Part shown: positions 334 to 11,508 of the stretch, piece after piece | Layout: the number at the start of each line of letters is the position of its first letter | How positions within the stretch are numbered: the stretch's first letter is position 1 | Assembly (NCBI RefSeq): GCF_001659685.2 | Contig: NZ_LXYE02000053.1 | Location: forward strand, 1 to 64,000 | Source of the DNA: Labilibacter marinus | Lineage (GTDB): Bacteria; Bacteroidota; Bacteroidia; Bacteroidales; Marinilabiliaceae | Length of the DNA: 64,000 bases | Direction of reading: 5' to 3' | The notes under the pieces: generated by a model | What the model saw: only the letters and a program-made list of their open reading frames with translations | The model's database searches: none | Told to the model about the DNA's origin: nothing | Program-made: the position numbers and the translations under genes

Positions 334-888
334 TTATTTAAGTCCCTCGTTTATGTTATCAATGTCATCTTCAAAATCTATACGAATATCTTCGTGAAGT
401 GTATTTAGCGCCTTATTTATATTTTTTACTTGTCGCTCGTATAAATTGACCATCACTTTACTTTCTTTAAAGGAAACACCGCAGTTTTGCATATTTAAGC
501 AAAAGCATATTAATAGTTCAATGGCAGTTTCTTTTTTGCCTGAGTGTTTAATGTGTTTAGTCACAACTCGAAGTATTCTGCGAATGTTTTTCTTTGTGTA
601 GTAAAAGGTGTTCTTGTCAATGCTCAGAAATTCAGTTTCTATTTCCTCCTTAATAGTATTGATGTAATCAAGTTCATTATCAGCTTCGAATAGCAGGTAA
701 TTAAGTAATTCTTTATTATCCTTTTTGTATTTAGCCATTCTCAAGCAGTGCTCAACAATGAGTTCCTTGGGCATCTGCTCCAGTTCTTTTTTTATCGTAT
801 GAACGGTGTTAATCTTTATTGGCATATACTGGTTTGTTATTCTTAGCAAACATACTAAAAGTTCAGGATAGGCTAAGTGATTTCTCAT
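334..888 (-). CDS. Hypothetical helical protein, 184 aa
   Basis: Unrecognised protein, predicted from composition to be almost entirely alpha-helical and cytoplasmic, with no signal peptide or membrane segment. The middle contains a run of basic residues (around residues 90-125, with KKNIRRILR) and the C-terminus is acidic. It is the first gene of a two-gene minus-strand unit with the 84-aa gene. It starts 69 bases from the divergent M50-like gene, so the short gap must hold both promoters. Function unknown. The divergent arrangement does not prove any link to the plus-strand cluster. Confidence 0.6.
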   Translation of the reverse strand: MRNHLAYPELLVCLLRITNQYMPIKINTVHTIKKELEQMPKELIVEHCLRMAKYKKDNKELLNYLLFEADNELDYINTIKEEIETEFLSIDKNTFYYTKKNIRRILRVVTKHIKHSGKKETAIELLICFCLNMQNCGVSFKESKVMVNLYERQVKNINKALNTLHEDIRIDFEDDIDNINEGLK

Positions 889-957
889 GATCGGTCACTT
901 CTTTTTCTACTCTTTTATACAGAATTGTTTTTTATATTGTGTTCAAAATATTTAACA

Positions 958-1605
958 ATGAAATCGAAGTTATTCTTAATTGTATTTAGTGCGATTATCT
1001 ATTGGGTTTTGGTTAATTATGTTCCGTTTGGGACGTATATTGTTTTACCCATTAATTTGTTTGTGACTTTTTTACATGAGTTAGGGCATGCAGTATTTGC
1101 ATTAATAACAGGAGGGAATGTTCATGAAGTCTTTATTCAGAGTAATGGAGCAGGGTATGCAGTTACTTCAGGTGGATTTGTGCCTCTCATTTTAATGGGA
1201 GGATATATTGGAAGTGCGTTATTTGGTAATTTATTATTATTCATAGGAATTTGTAAGCCTAAAACGAGCATGGTAGCATTATATGTTATTATTGCCATTT
1301 TAGTTTTTACAGCCATATGGTGGTATAGCTCAATATTTACTACGATTCTTTTATTGTTGTTTTCTGGCTTAGCATTTCTGCTGAGTAAAAAATCAAAAAA
1401 ATTAGTCGCAGATTTATTGGTGGTTATTGGAACGGTTAGCCTTCTTTATATTATCATGGATTATAATTCTGGTCCATCATCGGATTTAGCCAAGTTTACT
1501 GAGATAGTACCGATTCTACCTCAAGCAATATGGGCCATTGTATGGCTTATATTAGTCGTTTGGATGACTTATCTTACTTTGAAAAAAGCATTTAGGAAGT
1601 CATAA
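958..1605 (+). CDS. M50-family (M50B-like) intramembrane metalloprotease
   Basis: A 215-residue polytopic membrane protein with the zinc motif HELGH at residues 40-44 inside the second hydrophobic segment, followed by ALITGG, as in M50/M50B site-2-type proteases. About five to six membrane segments are visible. The reading frame is open upstream to 877, but that start would overlap the divergent gene and adds a hydrophobic, atypical leader. The ATG at 958 gives a normal N-terminus (MKSKLFL). The family cleaves or remodels proteins within membranes; the substrate is unknown. It is 113 bases upstream of the YqiJ/flotillin pair on the same strand, so membership of that cluster is plausible but not shown. 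Confidence 0.75.
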   Translation: MKSKLFLIVFSAIIYWVLVNYVPFGTYIVLPINLFVTFLHELGHAVFALITGGNVHEVFIQSNGAGYAVTSGGFVPLILMGGYIGSALFGNLLLFIGICKPKTSMVALYVIIAILVFTAIWWYSSIFTTILLLLFSGLAFLLSKKSKKLVADLLVVIGTVSLLYIIMDYNSGPSSDLAKFTEIVPILPQAIWAIVWLILVVWMTYLTLKKAFRKS

Positions 1606-1718
1606 TTAAGATACTTCCTCTGTAGGAAAATAACAATAAATTATTATATTCGTCCGTCTTGTTTTATTTAAAGGAATATTTCAAGATATCCTAGAACTAT
1701 TTATTAACTAAACCAACT

Positions 1719-2405
1719 ATGAAAGAAACATTAGACGCTGCGTTTTCTGCGATTAATATTATTCCTACCGTATTTCTTATTCTCATATTAATTTATTGGT
1801 TAACTGTAATTATTGGTGTTTTTAATATCGATAGTTTTGATATTGATGCGGATGCTGACCTTGATGTGGATGTGGACGTAGATGCCGATGTTGACCTGGA
1901 TGCTGATATAGATGCCGACGCTGACGTAAGTGCAGGTGATTCGTTACTTTGGTTAAACTCTGCTCTTTCCTTTTTTAATTTAGGAAAAGTACCTTTCATG
2001 TTGATTTTGAGTTTTTTTGTATTGTCGATGTGGGTTATTTCGCTACTGATGAATAATGCATTAAATAATGGTTCTGTTCTGTTATCGCTTGTTTATTTAA
2101 TCCCCAATATTTTGGTTAGTGCTTTTATCATGAAGTTTTTAACCAGTCCTTTTGTGAAGTTATTTGAGAAAGCAGAAAGTGATATTGATAGCAATGTTAG
2201 ACTAACGGGTAAAATGTGCAAGGTGACTTTAAATGCAACGCATCATAAAATGGGTCAAGCAGAGATTAAGATAGAGGGCTCATCATTTATTATTAATGTG
2301 AAGTCCACGGAGGAACAATATAATTTATATAAAGGAGACAGTTGTTTAGTGATAGACTATATACCGGAGAAAAAGATTTACTTAATTGAACCATATAAAA
2401 ACTAG
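1719..2405 (+). CDS. YqiJ-like membrane protein with C-terminal OB-fold and Asp-X acidic loop
   Basis: This 228-residue protein has a transmembrane helix at about 17-35, a strikingly regular acidic segment at 41-69 where every second residue is Asp (15 in a row, alternating with Ala, Val, Leu or Ile), two more helices at about 93-112 and 119-142, and a C-terminal beta-rich domain at about 160-228. That resembles the OB-fold of NfeD/YqiJ proteins. In many bacteria, as in E. coli yqiJ-yqiK, such proteins are encoded next to flotillins and are thought to work with them in membrane microdomains. Here only 5 bases separate it from the flotillin gene, so translation is probably coupled. The acidic loop may bind cations; that is inference. 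Confidence 0.75.
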   Translation: MKETLDAAFSAINIIPTVFLILILIYWLTVIIGVFNIDSFDIDADADLDVDVDVDADVDLDADIDADADVSAGDSLLWLNSALSFFNLGKVPFMLILSFFVLSMWVISLLMNNALNNGSVLLSLVYLIPNILVSAFIMKFLTSPFVKLFEKAESDIDSNVRLTGKMCKVTLNATHHKMGQAEIKIEGSSFIINVKSTEEQYNLYKGDSCLVIDYIPEKKIYLIEPYKN

Positions 2406-2410
2406 AAAAG

Positions 2411-4528
2411 ATGTTTGAAGGATTATCAGGATTACCAACAATAATTATTGTTGCTATTTGTGTAATATTATTTGGGTTTATCATATTAGTGATTAAAACC
2501 TATCGTAAGGCTACCCAGGGGCAGTCGCTTGTTCGTACTGGTCAGGGGGGTGTTAAAGTTTCATTTGGAGGAATGTTTGTTATCCCAGTTCTTCACCAAA
2601 TGGAGTTAATGGACATCACGCTTAAAACAGTAACCATTGCTCGTCAAGGTAAAGAAGGATTGATTTGTAAAGATAACTTGAGAGCCGATATTAAGGTTAA
2701 CTTCTTTGTTCGTGTAAATAAAACTTCAGAAGATGTAATTCAAGTTGCACAAGCCATTGGTTGCGATAGAGCATCTGATAAAGAATCATTGGTAGATTTA
2801 TTTGATGCTAAGTTTTCTGAAGCATTAAAGACGGTAGGTAAGCAATTTGATTTTGTTGAATTATATAACTCAAGGGAGCAATTTAAGTTAGAAATACTTA
2901 GGACAATTGGTACCGATTTGAATGGTTATGTACTGGATGATTGTGCCATTGATTATCTAGAGCAAACATCTATTGACGTACTATCTCCTGATAATATTTT
3001 AGATGTTGAGGGTATCAAGAAGATTACGAAGATTACTGCCGAACAACAAATATTATCTAATCAGATTAGAAGAGATAAAGAAAAAACTGTAACCAAGCAA
3101 GATGTTGAGGCCAAAGAAACTGTGCTACAATTAGAAAAACAGTTGGCAGAAACAGAAGAAAAACAAAAGAGAGAAATTGCTAATATTAAATCACGCGAGG
3201 AAGCCGAGATTTTTAAGGTAGAGCAAGAACAAAAGCTAATCAGTGAAAATGCTAGACTAGCAACAGAAGAAGAAGTTCAGGTAGCAGAAGAGAATAAAGA
3301 GCGACAAGTTATTGTAGCGCGTAAAAATAAAGAACGCACCGAGGCTATCGAAAATGAAGCTGTATTAAAAGACCAACAGATTGAAGAAAATGAGCGCGAA
3401 CGACTTGTAAGCATGGCTCGTTTAGATAAAGATAAAGCTCTAGAAGGTGAGCAAAAGAAAATGCAAGAAGTCATTCGTGAGCGAGTTGAAGTAGAGAAGT
3501 CGGTTGTTATTGAAGAGGAAAAAATAAAAGATACCAAAGCACATGCTGAGGCGGAAAGAAATAAGTTAGTGGCCATCAAGGATGCAGAGAAGGAAGCAGA
3601 AACGAATCTGGTGACTGAAATTAAAAGTGCTGAAGCGCATCGTAAAGCGGCTGAATTTCAAACTGAGCAACGTATCATGGAGGCTAAAGCTGCTGAAGAG
3701 GCTGCTGATAAAGAGGCTAATGCCACTAAAATATTAGCGGAGGCTAAAGCTGCTGAAGCTGCAGCATTAGGAATTTCTGAAGCGCAGGTGATTGAAGCTA
3801 AAGCGGAAGCCAAGGAGAAAGAAGGTATGGTTGATGCGAAACTTATTCTTGAAAAATCAAAAGCACAAGCTGAATCTATTAAAGAAACAGGTTTGGCTGA
3901 AGCTACTGTTGTAGAAGCTAAAGCGGATGCTGCCGAGAAAGAAGGTATGGCCGTTAACCGCGTAGACAGCGAGAAATACACTGTAGAAGCTAAAGGTATT
4001 GAAGAAAAAGCTGCTGCCATGAAGAAGTTAGATGGCGTAGGTAAAGAGCATGAAGAGTTCAAATTGAAATTAGATAAGGACAAAGAAATTCAGTTAGCTA
4101 AAATCAATATTCAAAAAGATATTGCAGAGTCGCAAGCTAAGGTGATTAGCGAAGCACTTAAAGCTGCTAATATTGATATTGTAGGAGGTGAAACGATGTT
4201 CTTTGAGCAAATTATGGGAGCTATCTCTAATGGTAAGAGTGTAGATAAAGTAGTTAATAATAGTGAGGTTTTAAAGCAAGTAAAAGATACTTTCTTCTCT
4301 ACTGAGGATGGGCAATCTTTTAAAGATAACATGTCTAGCTTTATTAATCAGTTTGGTGTTTCTTCCGATGATTTGAAAAACTTAACTATCTCAAATCTTT
4401 TATTTAAAATTGGCAATTTGGCCAATAATGAAAGTGATAAAAGCTCCATCTTTAATTTATTAGATATTGCAAAAAGTATGGGCTTATCTAATAAGTCTGC
4501 TTCTGATATAGGAATTGACCCATTTTAA
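2411..4528 (+). CDS. Flotillin family protein (YqiK-like, SPFH/band 7)
   Basis: The 705-residue product has one N-terminal membrane segment (about 9-29) and an SPFH/band-7 domain at about 35-220 containing the flotillin-like stretch SFGGMFVIPVLHQME. A long Ala/Glu/Lys-rich heptad region of about 330 residues (roughly 220-560) has repeated EAKAEA/EAKADA units and should form coiled coil. A C-terminal domain with GISEAQ-like and ISEALKAANIDIVGGE segments is typical of flotillins. Flotillins oligomerise into membrane scaffolds. The partner genes are the YqiJ-like protein upstream and, 457 bases downstream, a giant AAA+ ATPase. High Ala/Glu repetition produces long mirror reading frames on the other strand; these are not genes. 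Confidence 0.9.
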   Translation: MFEGLSGLPTIIIVAICVILFGFIILVIKTYRKATQGQSLVRTGQGGVKVSFGGMFVIPVLHQMELMDITLKTVTIARQGKEGLICKDNLRADIKVNFFVRVNKTSEDVIQVAQAIGCDRASDKESLVDLFDAKFSEALKTVGKQFDFVELYNSREQFKLEILRTIGTDLNGYVLDDCAIDYLEQTSIDVLSPDNILDVEGIKKITKITAEQQILSNQIRRDKEKTVTKQDVEAKETVLQLEKQLAETEEKQKREIANIKSREEAEIFKVEQEQKLISENARLATEEEVQVAEENKERQVIVARKNKERTEAIENEAVLKDQQIEENERERLVSMARLDKDKALEGEQKKMQEVIRERVEVEKSVVIEEEKIKDTKAHAEAERNKLVAIKDAEKEAETNLVTEIKSAEAHRKAAEFQTEQRIMEAKAAEEAADKEANATKILAEAKAAEAAALGISEAQVIEAKAEAKEKEGMVDAKLILEKSKAQAESIKETGLAEATVVEAKADAAEKEGMAVNRVDSEKYTVEAKGIEEKAAAMKKLDGVGKEHEEFKLKLDKDKEIQLAKINIQKDIAESQAKVISEALKAANIDIVGGETMFFEQIMGAISNGKSVDKVVNNSEVLKQVKDTFFSTEDGQSFKDNMSSFINQFGVSSDDLKNLTISNLLFKIGNLANNESDKSSIFNLLDIAKSMGLSNKSASDIGIDPF

Positions 4529-4606
4529 TTGTCAGACAAAATAAAATAAAGAACCCTCAGGACATGGTTCTTGTTAGTTCGAAAAGATAAAATTGTTAGA
4601 TATCAT

Positions 4607-4820
4607 GTAAATCGGCTCTCCTCCTTGCTAAGGAAACGTACGTCCACTTAGTGGAGGGGAGGTGGTTCTATGTGTATCTTAAAATTTCAGTTTTGTATGA
4701 GGTACAATTCAAATGTGTAGGGATAACTTTTAAAGGTTTGAGTGTTGTGTAGACAATTAAACCACCTCCCCTCGTACTTGATGATGTACTCCTCTATTTT
4801 AATGAGGAGTGCCGATTTAC
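4607..4820. repeat. Large imperfect inverted repeat (MITE-like intergenic element)
   Basis: The outer ends GTAAATCGGC (4607-4616) and GCCGATTTAC (4811-4820) are perfect inverted copies. Inner arms GAGGGGAGGTGGTT (4654-4667) and AACCACCTCCCCTC (4760-4773) are a perfect 14-base match. Nested CTCCTCC/GAGGAG segments also pair. About 90 bases of unpaired AT-rich DNA sit in the middle, and there is no credible coding frame. The CCTCC/GGAGG-rich arms resemble dispersed intergenic palindromes I remember from Bacteroidota genomes. It fills most of the gap between the flotillin and ATPase genes. Confidence 0.7.
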
Positions 4821-4839
4821 AGCTTAAATAATTTATTTT

Positions 4840-4972
4840 TTTGAAATATAAAGAACGATCCAAAGAGATTCCTAAATGGCTAACGAACAGTGTGACAATC
4901 TAAATGTCTCCAGTTTGTTAATCGATCAATAATTAAAGCTCATTTACCAGGCTTTCTTCTTTGAAATATAAA
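4840..4972. repeat. 13-base direct repeat upstream of the ATPase gene
   Basis: TTTGAAATATAAA occurs at 4840-4852 and again at 4960-4972, exactly 120 bases apart. The second copy lies 14 bases before the ATPase start codon. It could be two regulatory sites, a local duplication, or chance in AT-rich DNA. Confidence 0.4.
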
Positions 4973-4985
4973 CTCAAAGCAAATC

Positions 4986-7900
4986 ATGGCTACAACCACA
5001 CCGCAAGATACCAACGAAAATACAGCTGCCGAACCCCAGTTAGAACAAGGAACCTACGAAATTATTCGAAGTCGTTTAAACCAGCATGGTAAACAACTTC
5101 AGAGTAGATTAAATAACTTAAACGAGGAGCGTAAAGGTGTTTTTGGTTCCATAGAAACTACTTTAATTGGTAGCGAAAGAATTACAACGGCTAATAACTG
5201 TATCCCTGTGGATATGGTTACCATTGGTAATTCTTTTATTTTTGGTTACAACGTCATCATCGGACTGAAAAAGGAAGTGGATATTTCTGATGTTTTTAGC
5301 GTGTATGGCTATAACGCTGAAGAGCATAACTTTCATGAGGAATCCTTGGAGTTATTGATTTCTGATGAATTTGAGAAGGATTTTAAAAACTTATATAAGT
5401 ACTACAAAGAAACGCAGTTTATAAAGTTTGGTAAAATAGGGCCTTCGCTATTCTTGGTTTTTAAAACAGGAAAAGGAAAGTTTGATATCAAGACCTTTAA
5501 GTTTTTGATAAAAGGAAATACGATAGAGTACGTAGATAACAGAAGTGACCACGAATTCGTATTTCCGGATCAGCATGAGTTTAAATGGACCCGCACCACG
5601 CGTGATATGCATGTAAAAGGTCAGTTTCCACACATCTCTATTGAGGAGCAAATTTTTGTGGAAACAACTGAAGGTGATTTGACCATAAAGGTAGAGAATA
5701 ACACCGATTCTGGTTTGGGTATTTATGCCGAAGAGGTGGAGCATAAAACACAAACACTGGATGATGCAGAGTTTTATTATTCCATTATCGAAAACCTGAT
5801 TGTACTAAAAATAAAGCCTTACCAAGAAGAGCAATTTCGATATATCGTTTATAATAAAAAAATGCAGGAGGCTGTTCGAATAGATTCGCTGGAAGACTCA
5901 TGTGTTTTATTGCCCGATAGCCACGGTTTAATATTCGCCAATGGTTATTATTTGCAAACTGGGGAGATAAAGATTTTTGATAATGAACTGACGGAGATGA
6001 TTTTTCTACGTCGTATACCATCCCCAAATGGCGAGGATTATTTATATATATTCTATAATCAAACTCGTGGCGATTATGTGTTACTATCCTACAATTTAAT
6101 TGCTCAGCAGGTAGAAACACCAGTTATTTGTAATGGATATTCTTTGTTTGAGAATGGTGAAATCTGTTTTATGAAAACCGATGGTGCACCTAAAAAACAC
6201 CATGCCTTACAAATATGGAAAACGCCTTATCTGGATAGTAATTATCAGTTGGAAACAGAGTCAAACCAGACTTCGTTTTTATATAAAATTGGCAATAAGG
6301 ATATTGTTAGGGGAATGTCGGAATGTAATGAGGTACTTAAGCTCATTCAAAAAGAAGACAGTTATGCCAATCTGTATTTTGATATTCAAAAAACGGCCAA
6401 TGATATTTTAGATTCGTATTATTGGATAGGAAATGAGGAAGCAGCCAATCTTCAGGAGCCTCTTTTACAAATTAAAGAAACGGCAGGGAATGCCATAGAT
6501 GAATACGACAAGGTTGTTAGCATTAAAAAGAACTCGGCTGCAGAGGTGACCAGAGTGATGGAGCTAATTTCCAGTGTCACTAAAAAAATTAAAGACACCT
6601 CTTTTTCTGCTATCAATGAATATGTAGATGTGCTGGCAGAATTACGAACGCTGCGTGGCGAAACTATTTCGTTGAAAGAGTTGCGTTACGTAGATGTTGC
6701 TCATATCGAGAGTGAAGAGCTTAAATTGGAAGAATTCAATCAGGAGATTTCAAATAACTGTGTTCAGTTTCTGCTGAAACCTGAAGCCTTAGAACCATAC
6801 AGTAATAAAGTTGAAGAGCTGAAGGGTGATATTAAGGAAGTGAAAAAGGTGGTGAAAGCCAATGACATTGAAGAAGAGTTGAGCCAGACTTCCGGTGAGT
6901 TAGAGATGTTGATTGAAATTGTTAGTAATTTAAAAATTGATGATGCCACAGAAACCACGCGTATCATCGATAATATATCTACCATATACTCTAGTTTTAA
7001 CCAAGTAAATGCAGCTTTAAAACGTAAGCGTAAGGAGTTATTAAGCCTGGAGGGAACTGCAGAGTTTAATGCGCAAATTAAGCTGATTAGTCAAGGTTTA
7101 ACAAATTACTTAGAGCTATCGGATTCTCCTGAAAAGTGTATTGAATTTCAAACTAAACTGATGGTTCAGATTGAAGAGCTGGAAGGTAAGTTTTCGGAGT
7201 TTGATGAGTTTATCGATAAGATTTCTACCAAGCGAGATGAGATTTATAACTCCTTTGAATCGAAGAAAATTAGTTTGGTAGAGGCTCGAAACAAACGTGC
7301 TAATACATTATTCCAATCGTCTGAAAGAATACTAAAAGCCATTCAAAATAGGGTTTCTAAATTTGGAGATGTAAGTGAGATAAATGGTTATTACGCATCC
7401 GACTTAATGATTGAAAAGCTTCGAAACATTGTTTCTGAGCTAATAGAATTAGAAGATTCGGTGAAGGCCGACTCTATTCAAAGTCAATTAAAAACCGTCA
7501 AAGAGGAGGCCATCCGTCAGTTAAAAGATAAAACTGAATTATATGTAGATGGCGAAAATATCATCAAATTCGGGGAGCATAAATTCTCGGTAAATACCCA
7601 ACCATGTGAATTAACGATGGTTTACAAGGGTGAGGAGATGTTTTTCCACTTAACAGGAACTAACTTTTACGAGAATGTAAAAAATGAACAATTCTACGGA
7701 TTTAAAGACCTGTGGGACCAAAGCATTCCTTCGGAAAATACAAAAGTTTATCGCGCGGAATATTTGGCTTATAAAGTTTTTGTAAAATGTCAGCAGGAAT
7801 TCAATGGCCAATTAATTGCATTAAAAGATGACGATATCCTAAAGTACATTCGTGATTTTATGGCGCAACGCTATAACGAGGGTTATGTAAAAGGAGTGCA

Positions 7901-9905
7901 CGATATGGATGCCTTTATCGTGGTAAAGGAATTAATAGAATTATTAAAAACAGCAGGACTTCTAAAATATTCTACCCAAGCACGTGCATGTGCTGTTTTA
8001 TTTTGGAATAAATATGCCTCGGCAGAAGTTAAGGAATCGTACTATAAACAGTTAAAAGGTGTAGGTGCTTTATTAGAAATATTTCCAGATGCACAAGAGT
8101 TTCAATACATTGTTGATGGCTTAAAAGTGCAGATAGCAGAGTTTATTAACAAAACAGAATTGTTTAATCCTATTTTGGTAGACGAGGCAGCGGAGTACTT
8201 TTTTCATGAGGTGGTAAAAGATGAAAACTTTGTGATTGACAGCGAGGCTGCGGATTTATATAAATCGTTTATCGCTTATTTAAAGGATAAAAAGGCCAAC
8301 GATTTCTATCAGCAGTCTATTGAAGAATTAAATGCTGAACCTGTTGCGCAATATAAACTGATTAAAAAATGGCTGAGTGCTTTTATGAGTGCTTCTAGTC
8401 AGACCAATAAAACTCAGTATACTGATGAAGTGGCAGTGCTCTTGATGCTCAATTGTTTCAATAAGAAAAACATTGTTAAGGCATCTTTACGAAAGGAGCT
8501 GGAAGGGTTTCAAGGAACGCATAATGCTTTGGTTGATGGGAAATATTCTTTCGATTACAATCAGTTTATTCTTAAATTAAAAGCATACGAGAAGAACACA
8601 GCACTGCGTTTTGCCGATTTTACAGCGCTTAAAAAAGATTTGATTCAAGATTTCGAAGAGGAACTTCGTTTAGAGGAATTTAAACCGCGTGTGTTGTCGT
8701 CCTTCGTCAGAAATAAATTAATAGATAAAGTATACTTACCATTGGTGGGTGACAACTTAGCCAAACAGTTGGGTGCAGCTGGTGAGGGTAAGCGTACCGA
8801 CTTAATGGGAATGCTGTTATTGATATCGCCTCCAGGTTATGGTAAAACTACCCTGATGGAATATATTGCCAGTCGTTTGGGTATCATTTTTATGAAGATA
8901 AATGGTCCTGCTATTGGTCATGAGGTAACTTCCTTAGACCCTGCCGAAGCTGGTAATGCGAGTGCTCGTGAGGAGTTGAAAAAACTGAACTTGTCGTTTG
9001 AGATGGGTGATAATGTGATGATTTATCTCGACGATATTCAGCACTGTAATCCAGAGTTTTTACAGAAATTTATATCGCTTTGTGATGCCCAGCGTAAAAT
9101 CGAGGGTATTTATAAAGGACGCAGTAAGACCTATGATTTCCGTGGAAGAAAGGTTTGTGTAGTGATGGCGGGTAACCCATACACCGAGAGTGGTGATAAG
9201 TTTCAGATTCCAGATATGTTAGCCAACCGTGCCGATATATATAACCTGGGAGATATTTTAGGCGATACAGCCGATGTGTTTAATATGAGTTATATCGAAA
9301 ACTCGTTAACATCGAATAAAGTGTTAAACCAGTTGGCTGCCAAGAGTCATAATGATATTTACCCAATGCTTAAGTTGGCTGATTCAGGTAATAAAGAAGG
9401 ACTTGAATTTGAAGCCAGTCATACGCAAGGGCAGATTAATGATTATGTGAATATTCTGAAGAAATTAATGGTTATCCGTGATGTTATTTCTAAGGTGAAT
9501 CAACAATATATTGAGTCGGCTGCACAAGCGGAAGAATACCGAACTGAACCAGCTTTTAAGCTTCAAGGTTCGTATCGTAACATGAATAAGATAACCGAAA
9601 AGATTGTGACCATCATGAACGATGATGAGCTGGAGACTTTGATTCTTTCGCATTACGAAGGAGAGTCGCAAACACTGACTTCAGGAGCAGAGGCCAACAT
9701 GCTTAAATTTAAAGAGATTGTAGGCAAATTATCTGATGAAGAAGTACAACGTTGGGACGATATTAAAGCTACTTTTCAGAAAAATATGAAACTAAAAGCT
9801 GGAGGTAGCAGTCAGGCAGCGCAGGTACTGGAAGGTATGGTGAGTGTTACCGAAAGTATTAATAATGTTTCTGAGACGTTGAAAAAGTGTATATGGAATA
9901 GCTAA
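4986..9905 (+). CDS. Giant AAA+ ATPase (DUF3686-type, often labelled 'DNA repair ATPase')
   Basis: This 1639-residue cytoplasmic protein has no signal peptide. Residues about 30-440 are beta-rich with repeated short strand patterns. About 480-870 is helical and coiled-coil rich. Residues about 880-1230 form a mixed domain, and the C-terminal part (about 1240-1560) is an AAA+ module. That module has Walker A SPPGYGKT (1281-1288, Lys1287), Walker B MIYLDD (Asp1349-Asp1350), a sensor-1-like MAGNPY and an Arg-containing ANRADIYN. The architecture matches my memory of the DUF3686-AAA family annotated as DNA repair ATPase, for which I know no solid experimental basis. It is encoded between a flotillin and a TerB protein, pointing to a membrane-linked remodelling machine rather than repair. 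The substrate is unknown. Confidence 0.75.
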   Translation: MATTTPQDTNENTAAEPQLEQGTYEIIRSRLNQHGKQLQSRLNNLNEERKGVFGSIETTLIGSERITTANNCIPVDMVTIGNSFIFGYNVIIGLKKEVDISDVFSVYGYNAEEHNFHEESLELLISDEFEKDFKNLYKYYKETQFIKFGKIGPSLFLVFKTGKGKFDIKTFKFLIKGNTIEYVDNRSDHEFVFPDQHEFKWTRTTRDMHVKGQFPHISIEEQIFVETTEGDLTIKVENNTDSGLGIYAEEVEHKTQTLDDAEFYYSIIENLIVLKIKPYQEEQFRYIVYNKKMQEAVRIDSLEDSCVLLPDSHGLIFANGYYLQTGEIKIFDNELTEMIFLRRIPSPNGEDYLYIFYNQTRGDYVLLSYNLIAQQVETPVICNGYSLFENGEICFMKTDGAPKKHHALQIWKTPYLDSNYQLETESNQTSFLYKIGNKDIVRGMSECNEVLKLIQKEDSYANLYFDIQKTANDILDSYYWIGNEEAANLQEPLLQIKETAGNAIDEYDKVVSIKKNSAAEVTRVMELISSVTKKIKDTSFSAINEYVDVLAELRTLRGETISLKELRYVDVAHIESEELKLEEFNQEISNNCVQFLLKPEALEPYSNKVEELKGDIKEVKKVVKANDIEEELSQTSGELEMLIEIVSNLKIDDATETTRIIDNISTIYSSFNQVNAALKRKRKELLSLEGTAEFNAQIKLISQGLTNYLELSDSPEKCIEFQTKLMVQIEELEGKFSEFDEFIDKISTKRDEIYNSFESKKISLVEARNKRANTLFQSSERILKAIQNRVSKFGDVSEINGYYASDLMIEKLRNIVSELIELEDSVKADSIQSQLKTVKEEAIRQLKDKTELYVDGENIIKFGEHKFSVNTQPCELTMVYKGEEMFFHLTGTNFYENVKNEQFYGFKDLWDQSIPSENTKVYRAEYLAYKVFVKCQQEFNGQLIALKDDDILKYIRDFMAQRYNEGYVKGVHDMDAFIVVKELIELLKTAGLLKYSTQARACAVLFWNKYASAEVKESYYKQLKGVGALLEIFPDAQEFQYIVDGLKVQIAEFINKTELFNPILVDEAAEYFFHEVVKDENFVIDSEAADLYKSFIAYLKDKKANDFYQQSIEELNAEPVAQYKLIKKWLSAFMSASSQTNKTQYTDEVAVLLMLNCFNKKNIVKASLRKELEGFQGTHNALVDGKYSFDYNQFILKLKAYEKNTALRFADFTALKKDLIQDFEEELRLEEFKPRVLSSFVRNKLIDKVYLPLVGDNLAKQLGAAGEGKRTDLMGMLLLISPPGYGKTTLMEYIASRLGIIFMKINGPAIGHEVTSLDPAEAGNASAREELKKLNLSFEMGDNVMIYLDDIQHCNPEFLQKFISLCDAQRKIEGIYKGRSKTYDFRGRKVCVVMAGNPYTESGDKFQIPDMLANRADIYNLGDILGDTADVFNMSYIENSLTSNKVLNQLAAKSHNDIYPMLKLADSGNKEGLEFEASHTQGQINDYVNILKKLMVIRDVISKVNQQYIESAAQAEEYRTEPAFKLQGSYRNMNKITEKIVTIMNDDELETLILSHYEGESQTLTSGAEANMLKFKEIVGKLSDEEVQRWDDIKATFQKNMKLKAGGSSQAAQVLEGMVSVTESINNVSETLKKCIWNS

Positions 9906-9983
9906 AAAAGTGGGCAGTCTTCAGTAGGCAGTTAATAGTAATATTTCTATAATGACCGATAACGAATGTCGCTTCACGATATT

Positions 9984-10092
9984 GCTCCGACGGAGCCAAA
10001 GCAACAGCCCAGTGCATAGCGCTGGGTATACGTAATGTAAATCAACCGATGCATCACAAGGTCGTTTTTAATAAAAACAGAATTTGCATCGG
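9984..10092. repeat. Cluster of three hairpins between ATPase and terB-like gene
   Basis: Within the 250-base gap are three separate inverted repeats: GCTCC-GAC-GGAGC (9984-9996), CCCAGTGC...GCGCTGGG (10008-10026, one G-T pair) and CCGATGCA...TGCATCGG (10046-10053 with 10085-10092). The region is richer in GC than its surroundings and has no coding frame. It resembles a dispersed intergenic repeat or a structured RNA segment. No T-tract follows, so a simple terminator is unlikely. Confidence 0.5.
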
Positions 10093-10155
10093 AACTAGTT
10101 ATTAAAAACAACCATTGACTATTTACTAAAATATAATAAGCAATAAACTAATGTT

Positions 10156-10563
10156 ATGAATATAAGCGAATATCTTAATTCTGAAAAAGCCCAACTGGCC
10201 GTATTAACTAAAATGGCCAAAATTGACGGTCAGGTAACTGGTTCTGAAAAAATGTTTTTGAACCTAATGGCGCGTAAACTGGATATTTCAAATAACGATT
10301 TTGAGCATATTTACGAAAATACCGATAAATACGAATACGTACCACCCATTAATGAAGAAGATCGATTCATCATGTTTTATCGTGTTATTCAAATGATGAA
10401 AATGGACTTGTCGGTAGATGTTGAAGAGATAGATTTTTGTAAAGAACTAGGCCAAAAACTAAACATTAGTACCGATAAAATAGATGAGATCATTAAACTA
10501 TCCATCATGAAAAATAAAGAAGTGGTGGAGTATGATGATATTAGGAAGTTGTTGGTGGGGTAG
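10156..10563 (+). CDS. TerB-like (TerB/DjlA helical) protein
   Basis: A 135-residue soluble helical protein. The N-terminal half shows the TerB-type pattern: a helix with MAKIDGQVTGSEKMFLNLMARKL (acidic D-G then E), followed by a second helical repeat with MMKMDLSVDVEEIDFCKELGQKL. The paired 'M-x-D-G/L-x-V-x-x-E' turns are characteristic of TerB domains, which are linked to tellurite resistance clusters and membrane-associated stress or conflict systems and may bind metal. It follows the giant ATPase on the same strand after a 250-base gap containing hairpins, and precedes a small membrane protein by 20 bases. A role as a regulator or adaptor of the ATPase is inferred from context only. Confidence 0.75.
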   Translation: MNISEYLNSEKAQLAVLTKMAKIDGQVTGSEKMFLNLMARKLDISNNDFEHIYENTDKYEYVPPINEEDRFIMFYRVIQMMKMDLSVDVEEIDFCKELGQKLNISTDKIDEIIKLSIMKNKEVVEYDDIRKLLVG

Positions 10564-10583
10564 GTTAAATTGATGAAAACTAT

Positions 10584-11021
10584 ATGATAAAAGCTTATAG
10601 AGCATATACATATTTAGTTAATGTTATAGCATTAATATATATTGCAGCTGAAATTATTGATGGTTTTTCAACATTTTTAACTGAAGATTTCCTCATATTA
10701 GGTTTAATTGTCAGCGTATTATTTACCTCTTTCACTCTATGTAAAGCTAGTAGCCACTTTTCTGATGATAGAAAAGGAAAAGTGATTTCTTCAACAGAAA
10801 TAAAGTCTATGATGAAAGAGGGGAATGTTGATAAGGGAATAGTTTGGGCTAATTTTTCATTTGGTTTTTTAATAAGTCTTATGATGATTTTATATATTAT
10901 TGAAGAGTCAATTCGTAATTTAATCTCTGATGCGCCAAGACTAATCTCCATTCTAGTTATAGTTCTATATGGTATTGTTCAAATGCTGTTTGCTATATTG
11001 ATAAAAAAAAAGATTCATTAA
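10584..11021 (+). CDS. Small membrane protein, 145 aa, unknown function
   Basis: Not recognised. Four hydrophobic segments are visible: about 9-27, 33-52, 90-107 and 121-141. Between the second and third is a polar loop with KGKVISSTEIKSMMKEGN. There is no signal peptide cleavage site or catalytic motif. It starts 20 bases after the TerB-like gene on the same strand, which suggests co-transcription. In this position it may be a membrane partner of the flotillin/ATPase cluster, but there is no direct evidence for a function. Confidence 0.6.
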   Translation: MIKAYRAYTYLVNVIALIYIAAEIIDGFSTFLTEDFLILGLIVSVLFTSFTLCKASSHFSDDRKGKVISSTEIKSMMKEGNVDKGIVWANFSFGFLISLMMILYIIEESIRNLISDAPRLISILVIVLYGIVQMLFAILIKKKIH

Positions 11022-11133
11022 TTATTTGAAACCAGCATTATTAGATATTGTGTTGATATAGCAGAAATGGTAAGAGTCCAGATTAAAACAACATAGAGGG
11101 ACGCTTGGCTGATGATTAAATAAAGCTTTTAGA

Positions 11134-11508
11134 ATGATTACCGACAACATCATTATAGCTCAAATATTTAGTGCCTTATTATTGTGCGCTTTTATCGCCT
11201 TACATATATACTATGGTTATGTTTCTAGCCAGCAATTAACCGAGATGATCAAGTATTACTTTAAGCAAGGAGGTGTTGAAGTACTATCTGTTGATAAGCT
11301 CAGTTTTAACGACCAATTAAGAACTGGAGCTATCTTTACATACATAAGCAAGTACTTGGTGAGGTATACTTATAAACCTTTTACGTATGGGAGTAAGTAT
11401 TATAGAAGGGTTGAAATTATCAATGAATCGGGAGAAGAGGAGTTGGTTTATATAGCTGTTTTTGTAAAACAGAAAGCCATCGTATATTGCGATGAAGTTA
11501 AGTTTTAA
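11134..11508 (+). CDS. Single-pass membrane protein, 124 aa, unknown function
   Basis: Not recognised. The N-terminus has one hydrophobic segment (about 5-26). The rest is a soluble domain of about 95 residues rich in Tyr and aromatic residues, with predicted strands (YYRRVEIINESGEEELVYIAVF) and a C-terminal IVYCDEVKF. The layout suggests a membrane-anchored beta domain. It lies 112 bases after the 145-aa membrane protein and is the last plus-strand gene before the convergent ung. I include it in the cluster as a possible member only. Confidence 0.55.
   Translation: MITDNIIIAQIFSALLLCAFIALHIYYGYVSSQQLTEMIKYYFKQGGVEVLSVDKLSFNDQLRTGAIFTYISKYLVRYTYKPFTYGSKYYRRVEIINESGEEELVYIAVFVKQKAIVYCDEVKF

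What the first reader, a model, noticed from the sequence alone, without database searches (positions are those of the whole stretch)
958..11508. Flotillin / OB-fold / giant AAA+ ATPase / TerB membrane cluster: possible undescribed system
Seen: on one strand, an M50-like protease, a YqiJ-like membrane OB protein, a YqiK-like flotillin, a 1639-aa AAA+ ATPase, a TerB-like protein and two unknown small membrane proteins. Known: YqiJ and YqiK homologues pair in many bacteria, and TerB domains recur in membrane-linked stress and conflict systems. Inference: these genes may build one machine in which a flotillin scaffold localises a large ATPase, with TerB as sensor and M50 as a regulated protease. 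I know of no experimental function for the whole set.
Basis: partly seen in the sequence, partly recalled or inferred. Interest (0 to 1): 0.8.

Follow-up and report, generated by a model that had tools for sequence, protein, structure and literature searches.

The report
Flotillin–AAA+ membrane-stress cluster with TerB
A bacterial gene cluster for a membrane-scaffold protein, its partner and a giant ATP-driven motor, probably part of a cell-envelope stress machine already predicted from other genomes, turns out to have a small extra partner (TerB) that comes and goes with the motor even when its gene sits elsewhere on the chromosome.

Summary
The genes are real. The core, an NfeD/YqiJ-like protein, a flotillin and a 1639-aa DUF3686 AAA+ ATPase, is one conserved unit: 77 of 83 ATPase loci with enough upstream sequence carry all three. 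It is not undescribed: PMC11237479 (2024) reported the trio, with or without CesT–PspA, as a PspA-linked envelope-stress operon; P. aeruginosa bacABCDEF looks like a studied relative. Here CesT–PspA lies in a separate operon. New: TerB is a real partner, at least in this lineage. It follows the ATPase in 7 of 96 loci, and over all 71 held genomes of the window's family it occurs in 13 of 14 ATPase genomes and 0 of 57 others, although not adjacent in 6 of the 13. M50 adjoins the ATPase only here; a deletion scar in a sister genome shows that this neighbourhood is older than the species, but its co-occurrence is borderline once genus is allowed for. P6 and P7 were found nowhere else. The ATPase has Walker-B 'DD', not 'DE', in 96 of 96 sequences. 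Best mechanism (inferred): a flotillin/NfeD platform holds a beta-propeller AAA+ that remodels envelope-stress assemblies, TerB being a soluble adaptor or sensor.

The parts
1719..2405 (+). NfeD/YqiJ-like membrane protein, 228 aa: three TM-like stretches, an Asp-rich loop (residues 38-74) after the first; C-terminal OB-type domain inferred from YqiJ/YuaF, not shown. Core.
   Evidence: YqiJ_N in 11 of 25 family members; weak best PDB match YuaF 2k14, E 0.17; present in 77 of 83 loci, 76 of them upstream on the same strand; TM scan
2411..4528 (+). Flotillin/SPFH protein, 705 aa: N-terminal TM-like stretch (10-28), Band_7 domain, then a long Glu/Lys/Ala-rich, coiled-coil-like stretch. Core.
   Evidence: Band_7 47.4 bits on residues 1-230; six-frame match; present in 80 of 83 loci, 79 upstream on the same strand
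4986..9905 (+). 1639-aa DUF3686 ATPase: N-terminal helix, predicted beta-propeller, long helices/DUF7902, helical region, C-terminal AAA+. Core.
5097..6422 (+). DUF3686 region (residues 38-479), mostly beta, predicted propeller
8829..8852 (+). Walker A, PPGYGKTT (residues 1282-1289)
   Evidence: 96 of 96 sequences
9018..9035 (+). Walker B, MIYLDD (residues 1345-1350); second acidic residue is Asp, not Glu
   Evidence: D1349 and D1350 in 96 of 96
9174..9230 (+). Sensor-1-like N1397 and candidate arginine finger R1415
   Evidence: both in 96 of 96; functional roles inferred from motif position
10156..10563 (+). TerB-family protein, 135 aa, no TM-like stretch. Recurrent partner.
   Evidence: Pfam TerB; +1 gene in 7 of 96 loci; 13 of 14 ATPase genomes of the family, 0 of 57 others
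877..1605 (+). M50B-like intramembrane metalloprotease (ATG at 958 likely the start). Old neighbour, membership uncertain.
   Evidence: adjacency only in the window, scar in G526; co-occurrence
334..888 (-). 184-aa protein of unknown family, divergent from M50 in relatives: flanking block, not part of the system
   Evidence: upstream of M50 in 5 of 11 fetched M50 loci and upstream of NfeD in L189; no Pfam match
10584..11021 (+). P6, 145-aa membrane protein found only here; probably not part of the system
   Evidence: 1 of 60 family genomes, the window's own
11134..11508 (+). P7, 124-aa protein with one TM-like stretch, found only here; probably not part of the system
   Evidence: no homologue in the other 97 loci, in L189-L208 or in L276-L285; not searched genome-wide

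Best explanation
The cluster is a 'split' form of the PspA-linked flotillin/NfeD/AAA+ envelope-stress module. Shown: the NfeD, flotillin and ATPase genes stay together over several phyla and their trees agree; the PspA and CesT partners are encoded in a second operon of the same genome; TerB comes and goes with the ATPase in this family, adjacent or not. Inferred: the flotillin oligomerises on the inner membrane with the NfeD/YqiJ protein and makes a platform; the ATPase docks on it through its helices and beta-propeller, and its AAA+ ring pulls on or disassembles a client at the membrane, most plausibly PspA/ESCRT-III-like assemblies or damaged membrane complexes; TerB is a soluble adaptor or signal-sensing subunit of the ATPase that can act in trans. 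The M50 protease, P6 and P7 are not needed for this model.
For: Trio in 77 of 83 loci, 76 with both genes upstream on the same strand. ATPase-flotillin distance r=0.80 over 77 loci; 42 of 47 strong flotillin splits also strong in the ATPase tree. Full CesT-PspA-NfeD-flotillin-ATPase operons in relatives, with TerB added in L077, L197 and L282. Window genome has CesT-PspA on another contig with DUF4178, DUF350 and spermine synthase. TerB 13 of 14 against 0 of 57; 13 of 2,000,000 genus-stratified permutations as high. Models: mostly-beta, propeller-like N-part, AAA+. Literature: same operon predicted; P. aeruginosa bac operon co-transcribed and PspA-like; PA3728-PA3732 rise on phage infection.
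Against: I saw no experiment on any of these proteins in Bacteroidota. CesT-PspA is near the ATPase in only 35-36 of 83 loci. TerB is next to the ATPase in only 7 of 96 loci; in the order sample a looser TerB model matches 5 of 11 ATPase genomes and 27 of 187 others. Five of the 13 family TerBs were in the search model. Tree-based independent pairs are only 3 on starred branches and cannot reach significance. ATPase carriers are mostly large genomes. Agreeing trees also follow from shared vertical descent. SPFH proteins of P. aeruginosa, the bac flotillin among them, were reported largely dispensable in the laboratory (passages). No contact, client or ATPase activity is shown; the invariant Walker-B Asp could mean weak hydrolysis.
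Confidence: 0.55

Rival explanations
1. One reading: all seven genes make one machine, with M50 as regulated protease and the small membrane proteins as subunits.
For: On one strand in a row. M50 in 8 of 10 ATPase genomes and 4 of 50 others. Deletion scar in G526 puts M50 next to TerB in an ancestor.
Against: M50 is next to the ATPase in no other locus compared; genus-stratified co-occurrence as high in 50,986 of 1,000,000 draws; M50 is kept in G526, G536, G542 and G508 without the ATPase; P6 in 1 of 60 genomes.
Confidence: 0.1
2. The trio is a flotillin-based membrane-domain or protein-quality-control complex that has nothing to do with PspA.
For: CesT-PspA absent near the ATPase in 47-48 of 83 loci; other SPFH proteins interact with the FtsH protease (passages of PMC2636767).
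Against: When present, PspA and CesT lie upstream on the same strand in the same order; the window genome still encodes the pair elsewhere.
Confidence: 0.2
3. TerB's co-occurrence with the ATPase reflects relatedness or large genomes, not function.
For: Only a few independent pairs. ATPase genomes are mostly large: in genus g298 carriers have 5.4-7.4 Mb, non-carriers 4.2-5.8 Mb. TerB adjacency is rare outside the family, and co-occurrence over the order is weaker, 5 of 11 against 27 of 187.
Against: 13 of 14 against 0 of 57; permutation inside genera reaches this in 13 of 2,000,000 draws; in genus g298 the 8 ATPase genomes carry exactly one TerB each at E<=1e-12, 3 next to the ATPase and 5 elsewhere, and the 6 others none; TerB follows the ATPase in two Flavobacteriales MAGs too (L077, L110).
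Confidence: 0.15
4. An anti-phage or conflict system.
For: TerB domains recur in conflict systems (recalled); PA3728-PA3732, Pseudomonas genes of the related bac locus, rise in phage infection (passage).
Against: Seven proteins gave only weak partial PADLOC matches (best E 0.001); no match to the ATPase in 50,697 phage records; one weak PHROG match, to the P-loop region; the ATPase tree is largely vertical by phylum.
Confidence: 0.07
5. A DNA-repair ATPase, as the Pfam and RefSeq names say.
For: Annotation: 'ATPase involved in DNA repair', 'DNA repair ATPase'. A Shewanella COG2268 (YqiK-type) flotillin knock-out had more spontaneous mutation and peroxide sensitivity (title, passages), explained there through iron metabolism.
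Against: Neighbours are a membrane scaffold and its partner in 77 of 83 loci; matches of the C-terminal part to RuvB and CDC48 chains span only 33-67 residues round the Walker A.
Confidence: 0.04

Closest known systems
PspA-linked CesT/band-7/AAA+ operon and its 'abbreviated' form, PMC11237479, 2024 (section 19 read in full; other passages)
   Same: [quoted passage not shown] the paper suggests PspA may be encoded elsewhere, which is the case here.
   Different: CesT-PspA is in a separate operon; TerB follows the ATPase and tracks it over the family's genomes. The term TerB has no occurrence in that paper's main text; its supplements were not seen.
P. aeruginosa bacABCDEF, PMC10948618 (abstract, passages and first part of the Discussion) and PMC2587700 (passages)
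   Same: Co-transcribed CesT-fold BacA, PspA-like BacB, short NfeD BacC and flotillin BacD (NfeD and flotillin from passages of PMC13086221), then BacE and BacF; PA3728 is listed as 'ATPase' (passage of PMC8190622). That BacE is PA3728 is inferred from gene order.
   Different: Has CesT-PspA in the operon; no TerB in the passages seen. BacE's homology to this ATPase was not tested: its sequence was not at hand.
E. coli YqiJ-YqiK and B. subtilis YuaF-YuaG (SPFH2/NfeD2 operons, PMC2636767, passages)
   Same: NfeD-type plus flotillin pair.
   Different: No DUF3686 ATPase: 0 of 14 control genomes, E. coli and B. subtilis among the controls (named).
MoxR-type AAA+ (CbbQ, NorQ)
   Same: AAA+ fold; Foldseek TM-scores by target 0.50 (6l1q) and 0.58 (9qh6), the latter the highest among the 50 rows seen.
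   Different: Walker B DD instead of DE; MCM, spastin, RuvB and Lon have similar E-values, so the clade is unresolved.
Ter stress systems (TerB/C/D; recalled)
   Same: A TerB-family protein.
   Different: No TerC, TerD or vWA among the seven proteins scanned.

Membership tests
[quoted passage not shown]
   Band_7 47.4 bits, TM-like stretch 10-28, present in 80 of 83 loci; coiled coil and flotillin tail not computed
PspA-linked flotillin/YqiJ/AAA+ module, abbreviated form (PMC11237479) | 3TM YqiJ/YuaF-type protein | tested here: met
   three TM-like stretches; YqiJ_N in 11 of 25 members, window protein itself below cut-off; YuaF 2k14 match weak, E 0.17
[quoted passage not shown]
   N-part model mean pLDDT 87.9, helix then mostly beta, propeller proteins among the matches but TM-score by target at most 0.41 in the 50 rows seen; AAA+ part mean pLDDT 85.8
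PspA-linked flotillin/YqiJ/AAA+ module, full form (PMC11237479) | CesT/Tir-PspA dyad in the same operon | tested here: not met
   none in the window's cluster; dyad on contig C38 instead
P. aeruginosa Bac system | BacE is a DUF3686 ATPase | not testable with these tools
   no PA14/PAO1 sequence at hand; 'ATPase' for PA3728 in a table, and a 40%-identical homologue after an SPFH gene on the Pseudomonas plasmid pQBR103
Canonical AAA+ ATPase | Walker A | tested here: met
   PPGYGKTT in 96 of 96
Canonical AAA+ ATPase | Walker B ending in Asp-Glu | tested here: not met
   Asp-Asp in 96 of 96
MoxR/helix-2-insert clade | clade-specific insert and lid | tested here: inconclusive
   AAA_5 23.2 bits against 22; CbbQ/NorQ among mixed Foldseek matches
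Ter stress system | TerC/TerD/vWA neighbours | tested here: not met
   none among the seven cluster proteins
Known anti-phage defence system | match to a defence model | tested here: not met
   seven proteins, only weak partial matches in PADLOC

The most novel reading that the evidence does not exclude
The DUF3686 beta-propeller AAA+ is a bacterial counterpart of Vps4: anchored by a flotillin/NfeD ring, it disassembles ESCRT-III-like PspA polymers during membrane repair, as a slow Asp-Asp Walker-B motor, and TerB is its dedicated signal-sensing co-factor that acts in trans.
Probability: 0.2. Interest if true: 0.8.

Novelty: new variant of a known kind. Interest (0 to 1): 0.5.

Why it matters
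PspA belongs to the ESCRT-III superfamily (title cited in PMC10948618), and PMC11237479 says it is unknown how PspA homologues without an associated AAA ATPase regulate assembly (passage). This module offers a large, strictly conserved AAA+ candidate held together with a flotillin, and now a TerB whose presence follows the ATPase. It gives TerB, a domain whose biochemistry is little known (recalled), a concrete protein to test for binding, and suggests that lineages with split loci still run the same machine.

Tried and rejected
P6 and P7 as components: rejected, found only in the window (P7 not searched genome-wide). M50 as an obligatory component: not supported, see rivals; the scar in G526 shows only that the neighbourhood is old. 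A fixed +1 gene after the ATPase in all lineages: not found; of 30 +1 genes scanned together (of 42 same-strand +1 genes within 200 bp), 3 matched DUF3592 and 2 PspA, and each other family shown had one member (25 of 37 families shown). TerB with a constant partner elsewhere: 20 TerB loci of the order showed no shared neighbour by eye; Pfam was run on 10 neighbours from 8 of them. A recalled Bacteroidota -33/-7 promoter pattern: 6 in the window, 5.56 expected. Conserved spacer between flotillin and ATPase: none seen in the window and 4 relatives. Solved-structure relatives by sequence: for the C-part only short stretches round the Walker A (60 of 61 rows seen); for the N-part only a coiled-coil protein at E 0.002-0.04. 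Papers: DUF3686, 0; 'DNA repair ATPase' with flotillin, 0; TerB with flotillin as whole words, 0; 'TerB domain' with PspA, one paper on CARF and WYL domains, not opened. The library holds open-licence papers only.

Rows dropped: L043 (G384, DUF3686 match below cut-off) was read but left out of later counts. The window and L197 have under 6 kb upstream and are not among the 83. A weak broken M50 match (G494) is not counted. Eleven family genomes with only weak TerB matches (E 1.5e-8 to 1e-3, one of them the G526 remnant) were not counted as having TerB; the limit of 1e-12 was set.
Full report
WHAT IS THERE. The window is contig C49 of a 6.03-Mb genome in 81 contigs. Seven + strand ORFs at 877/958-11508 are confirmed, with Pfam assignments as listed in the observation check. 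They are not tightly packed: gaps of 113, 5, 457, 250, 20 and 112 bp.

THE CORE IS CONSERVED. DUF3686 is patchy: 8 of 296 genomes over the phylum, 12 of 198 in the order (11 over the cut-off), 14 of 71 held genomes of the family. I collected 107 ATPase loci: the window, 17 from the phylum and order samples, 80 named ones (the best 80 of 531 confirmed) and 9 from the family. With at least 6 kb upstream (83 loci), flotillin is present in 80, the NfeD-type gene in 77, all three in 77, PspA in 36, CesT in 35. Flotillin and NfeD are both upstream on the ATPase's strand in 76; in L081 they lie on the other strand. L035, L057 and L064 have no flotillin. The loci were chosen by the ATPase only, but the profiles were built from the same loci. 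In 77 loci with complete genes, ATPase and flotillin tree distances correlate at 0.80 (0 of 2000 permutations as high); 54 of 74 splits are shared, 42 of 47 strong flotillin splits are also strong in the ATPase tree, and 4 of 2679 strong split pairs conflict. Vertical descent alone would give agreement too; the ATPase tree largely follows phyla, 9 changes for 9 groups where 8 is the least, 23 of 84 rows having no group.

IT IS A KNOWN ASSOCIATION. [quoted passage not shown] My loci reproduce the full form: upstream CesT_Tir_1 and PspA_IM30 genes confirmed by Pfam in L027, L193 and L197. A further gene, an HTH protein in the two members scanned, mostly divergent, occurs in 36 of 83 loci. The window's genome fits the abbreviated form: its only PspA match is on contig C38, in the order CesT, PspA, DUF4178, unknown, DUF350, spermine synthase, much like the paper's second operon type.

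TERB. TerB is the next gene after the ATPase on the same strand in 7 of 96 loci with at least 800 bp downstream: window, L077, L110, L190, L191, L192, L197. L077 carries CesT-PspA-NfeD-flotillin-ATPase-TerB, TerB overlapping the ATPase's last base. Presence needs 4 changes on the ATPase tree of 84 loci, of which 6 have TerB (L110 is cut off and not in it). In the family, the first 60 genomes gave strong, full-length TerB (E<=1e-37) in 9 of 10 ATPase genomes and 0 of 50 others; 11 genomes had only weak matches (E 1.5e-8 or worse), among them G510 and the G526 remnant. The other 11 held genomes then gave 4 of 4 and 0 of 7: in all 13 of 14 against 0 of 57. Five of the 13 were in the search model, eight were not. 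TerB is adjacent in 7 (G000, G515, G524, G532, G539, G552, G553) and elsewhere in 6 (G497, G530, G538, G544, G548, G549). In the five of these in genus g298 it lies beside a gene of one family (one gene away in G530), identified as methionine sulfoxide reductase (SelR) in the 3 of 5 scanned. Only G510 has the ATPase without TerB. Permuting inside genera reaches 13 shared genomes in 13 of 2,000,000 draws. Limits: on an rpoB tree of 57 genomes (3 of the 60 had no rpoB match) only 3 independent pairs lie on starred branches, TerB never going the other way, so the sign test cannot be significant; carriers are mostly large genomes; in the order sample a looser TerB model matches 5 of 11 ATPase genomes and 27 of 187 others.

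M50, P6, P7. M50 homologues are in 12 of 60 family genomes at strong E-values, a thirteenth match (G494, E 6e-4) being broken and weak. They are next to the ATPase in no locus compared except the window; in G539 they are about 38 kb apart. Overlap with the ATPase is 8 of 10 against 4 of 50, but 50,986 of 1,000,000 genus-stratified draws are as high. In G526, which lacks the ATPase, the M50 stop codon is followed at once by the last 38 residues of TerB (68% identity, L200:6554-6667). I read this as a deletion that took out the trio and most of TerB, so that the M50-trio-TerB order is older than the window's species. In G510 homologues of the flanking 84- and 184-aa genes sit directly before NfeD, without M50 or TerB. 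P6 is in 1 of 60 family genomes; P7 is in none of the other loci compared.

THE ATPASE. Over 96 full-length sequences (44% identity to the window at the least), Walker A, N1397 and R1415 are invariant and Walker B is Asp-Asp in all. That D1350 stands where the catalytic Glu normally stands is read from the motif. Models: residues 1-700, mean pLDDT 87.9, a helix, then mostly beta, then long helices; propeller proteins (DCAF1, Vps18, clathrin, prolyl oligopeptidase, YncE) are among the 50 matches seen, but TM-scores by target reach only 0.41 and rmsd is about 14 A or more. The paper names a beta-propeller there independently. Residues 861-1639, mean pLDDT 85.8, helical region then AAA+; MCM, CbbQ, spastin, NorQ, RuvB and Lon match with similar E-values, CbbQ and NorQ with the highest TM-scores by target (0.44-0.58), again at high rmsd. 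Sequence profiles find no solved relative beyond short stretches. It has no TM-like stretch, so a place at the membrane would have to come from partners (inference).

EXPERIMENTAL RELATIVES. P. aeruginosa bacABCDEF is one operon by RT-PCR; the five partners accumulate 6.1- to 13.5-fold in the bacA mutant (passages). BacB is PspA-like and rises on osmotic shock; PA14_16180 (BacD) is the flotillin PaFlo3, in an operon with a short NfeD, PA14_16160 (passages of PMC13086221). [quoted passage not shown] PA3728 is listed as 'ATPase', and PA3728-PA3732 are among 17 genes raised in all phage-infected samples. A Shewanella YqiK-type flotillin knock-out altered iron metabolism, mutation rate and peroxide sensitivity (title, passages). 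I could not test whether BacE is a DUF3686 protein; the Pseudomonas plasmid pQBR103 carries YjfI, PspA, rhomboid, DUF2491, DUF350, DUF1190, glutathionylspermidine synthase, a hypothetical gene, SPFH and 'DNA repair ATPase' in a row, the last 40% identical to the window's over 100%.

MECHANISM. Best reading: a flotillin/NfeD platform recruits the propeller-AAA+ motor to remodel membrane-bound assemblies under envelope stress, PspA-type polymers being the most natural client; TerB is an adaptor or sensor of the ATPase. Shown: gene linkage, co-occurrence, domain anatomy by profile and model, split PspA locus. Inferred: contacts, client, energy use, TerB's role. Rivals are given with their tests.

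VERDICT. Real, mostly described already, with one new and testable element (TerB) and one curiosity (invariant Asp-Asp Walker B). New variant of a known kind; interest 0.5. That TerB's tie is new rests on the searches only.

Noticed in passing
L200:6554-6667 (G526): TerB C-terminal remnant (38 residues, 68% identity) directly after the M50 stop codon: probable scar of a deletion that removed NfeD, flotillin, ATPase and most of TerB.
   Followed up: yes
L214:7991-13203 (G000 contig C38): The window genome's only PspA match, in a separate operon CesT-PspA-DUF4178-unknown-DUF350-spermine synthase.
   Followed up: yes
window 4986-9905, residue 1350: Walker B Asp-Asp in 96 of 96 homologues from several phyla, in place of the usual Asp-Glu.
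   Followed up: partly
window 1719-2405, residues 38-74: Asp-rich repeat (DxDxD) between the first two TM-like stretches of the NfeD/YqiJ-like protein, variable in length in relatives; possible metal-binding loop (speculation).
   Followed up: no
L276, L277, L278, L280, L281: In five genomes of one genus the unlinked TerB lies beside (in L276 one gene away from) a gene of one family, identified as methionine sulfoxide reductase (SelR) in the three scanned.
   Followed up: partly
L026:11105-11539: A DUF559 gene between flotillin and ATPase in a genome whose ATPase groups with Hymenobacter; a homologous gene sits just before the ATPase in L045 and L051. DUF3592 genes follow the ATPase in three of 30 scanned loci.
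   Followed up: no
L215 (plasmid pQBR103): A Pseudomonas megaplasmid carries YjfI-PspA, polyamine-type Psp genes and the flotillin-ATPase pair in one row, joining operon types that PMC11237479 describes apart.
   Followed up: partly
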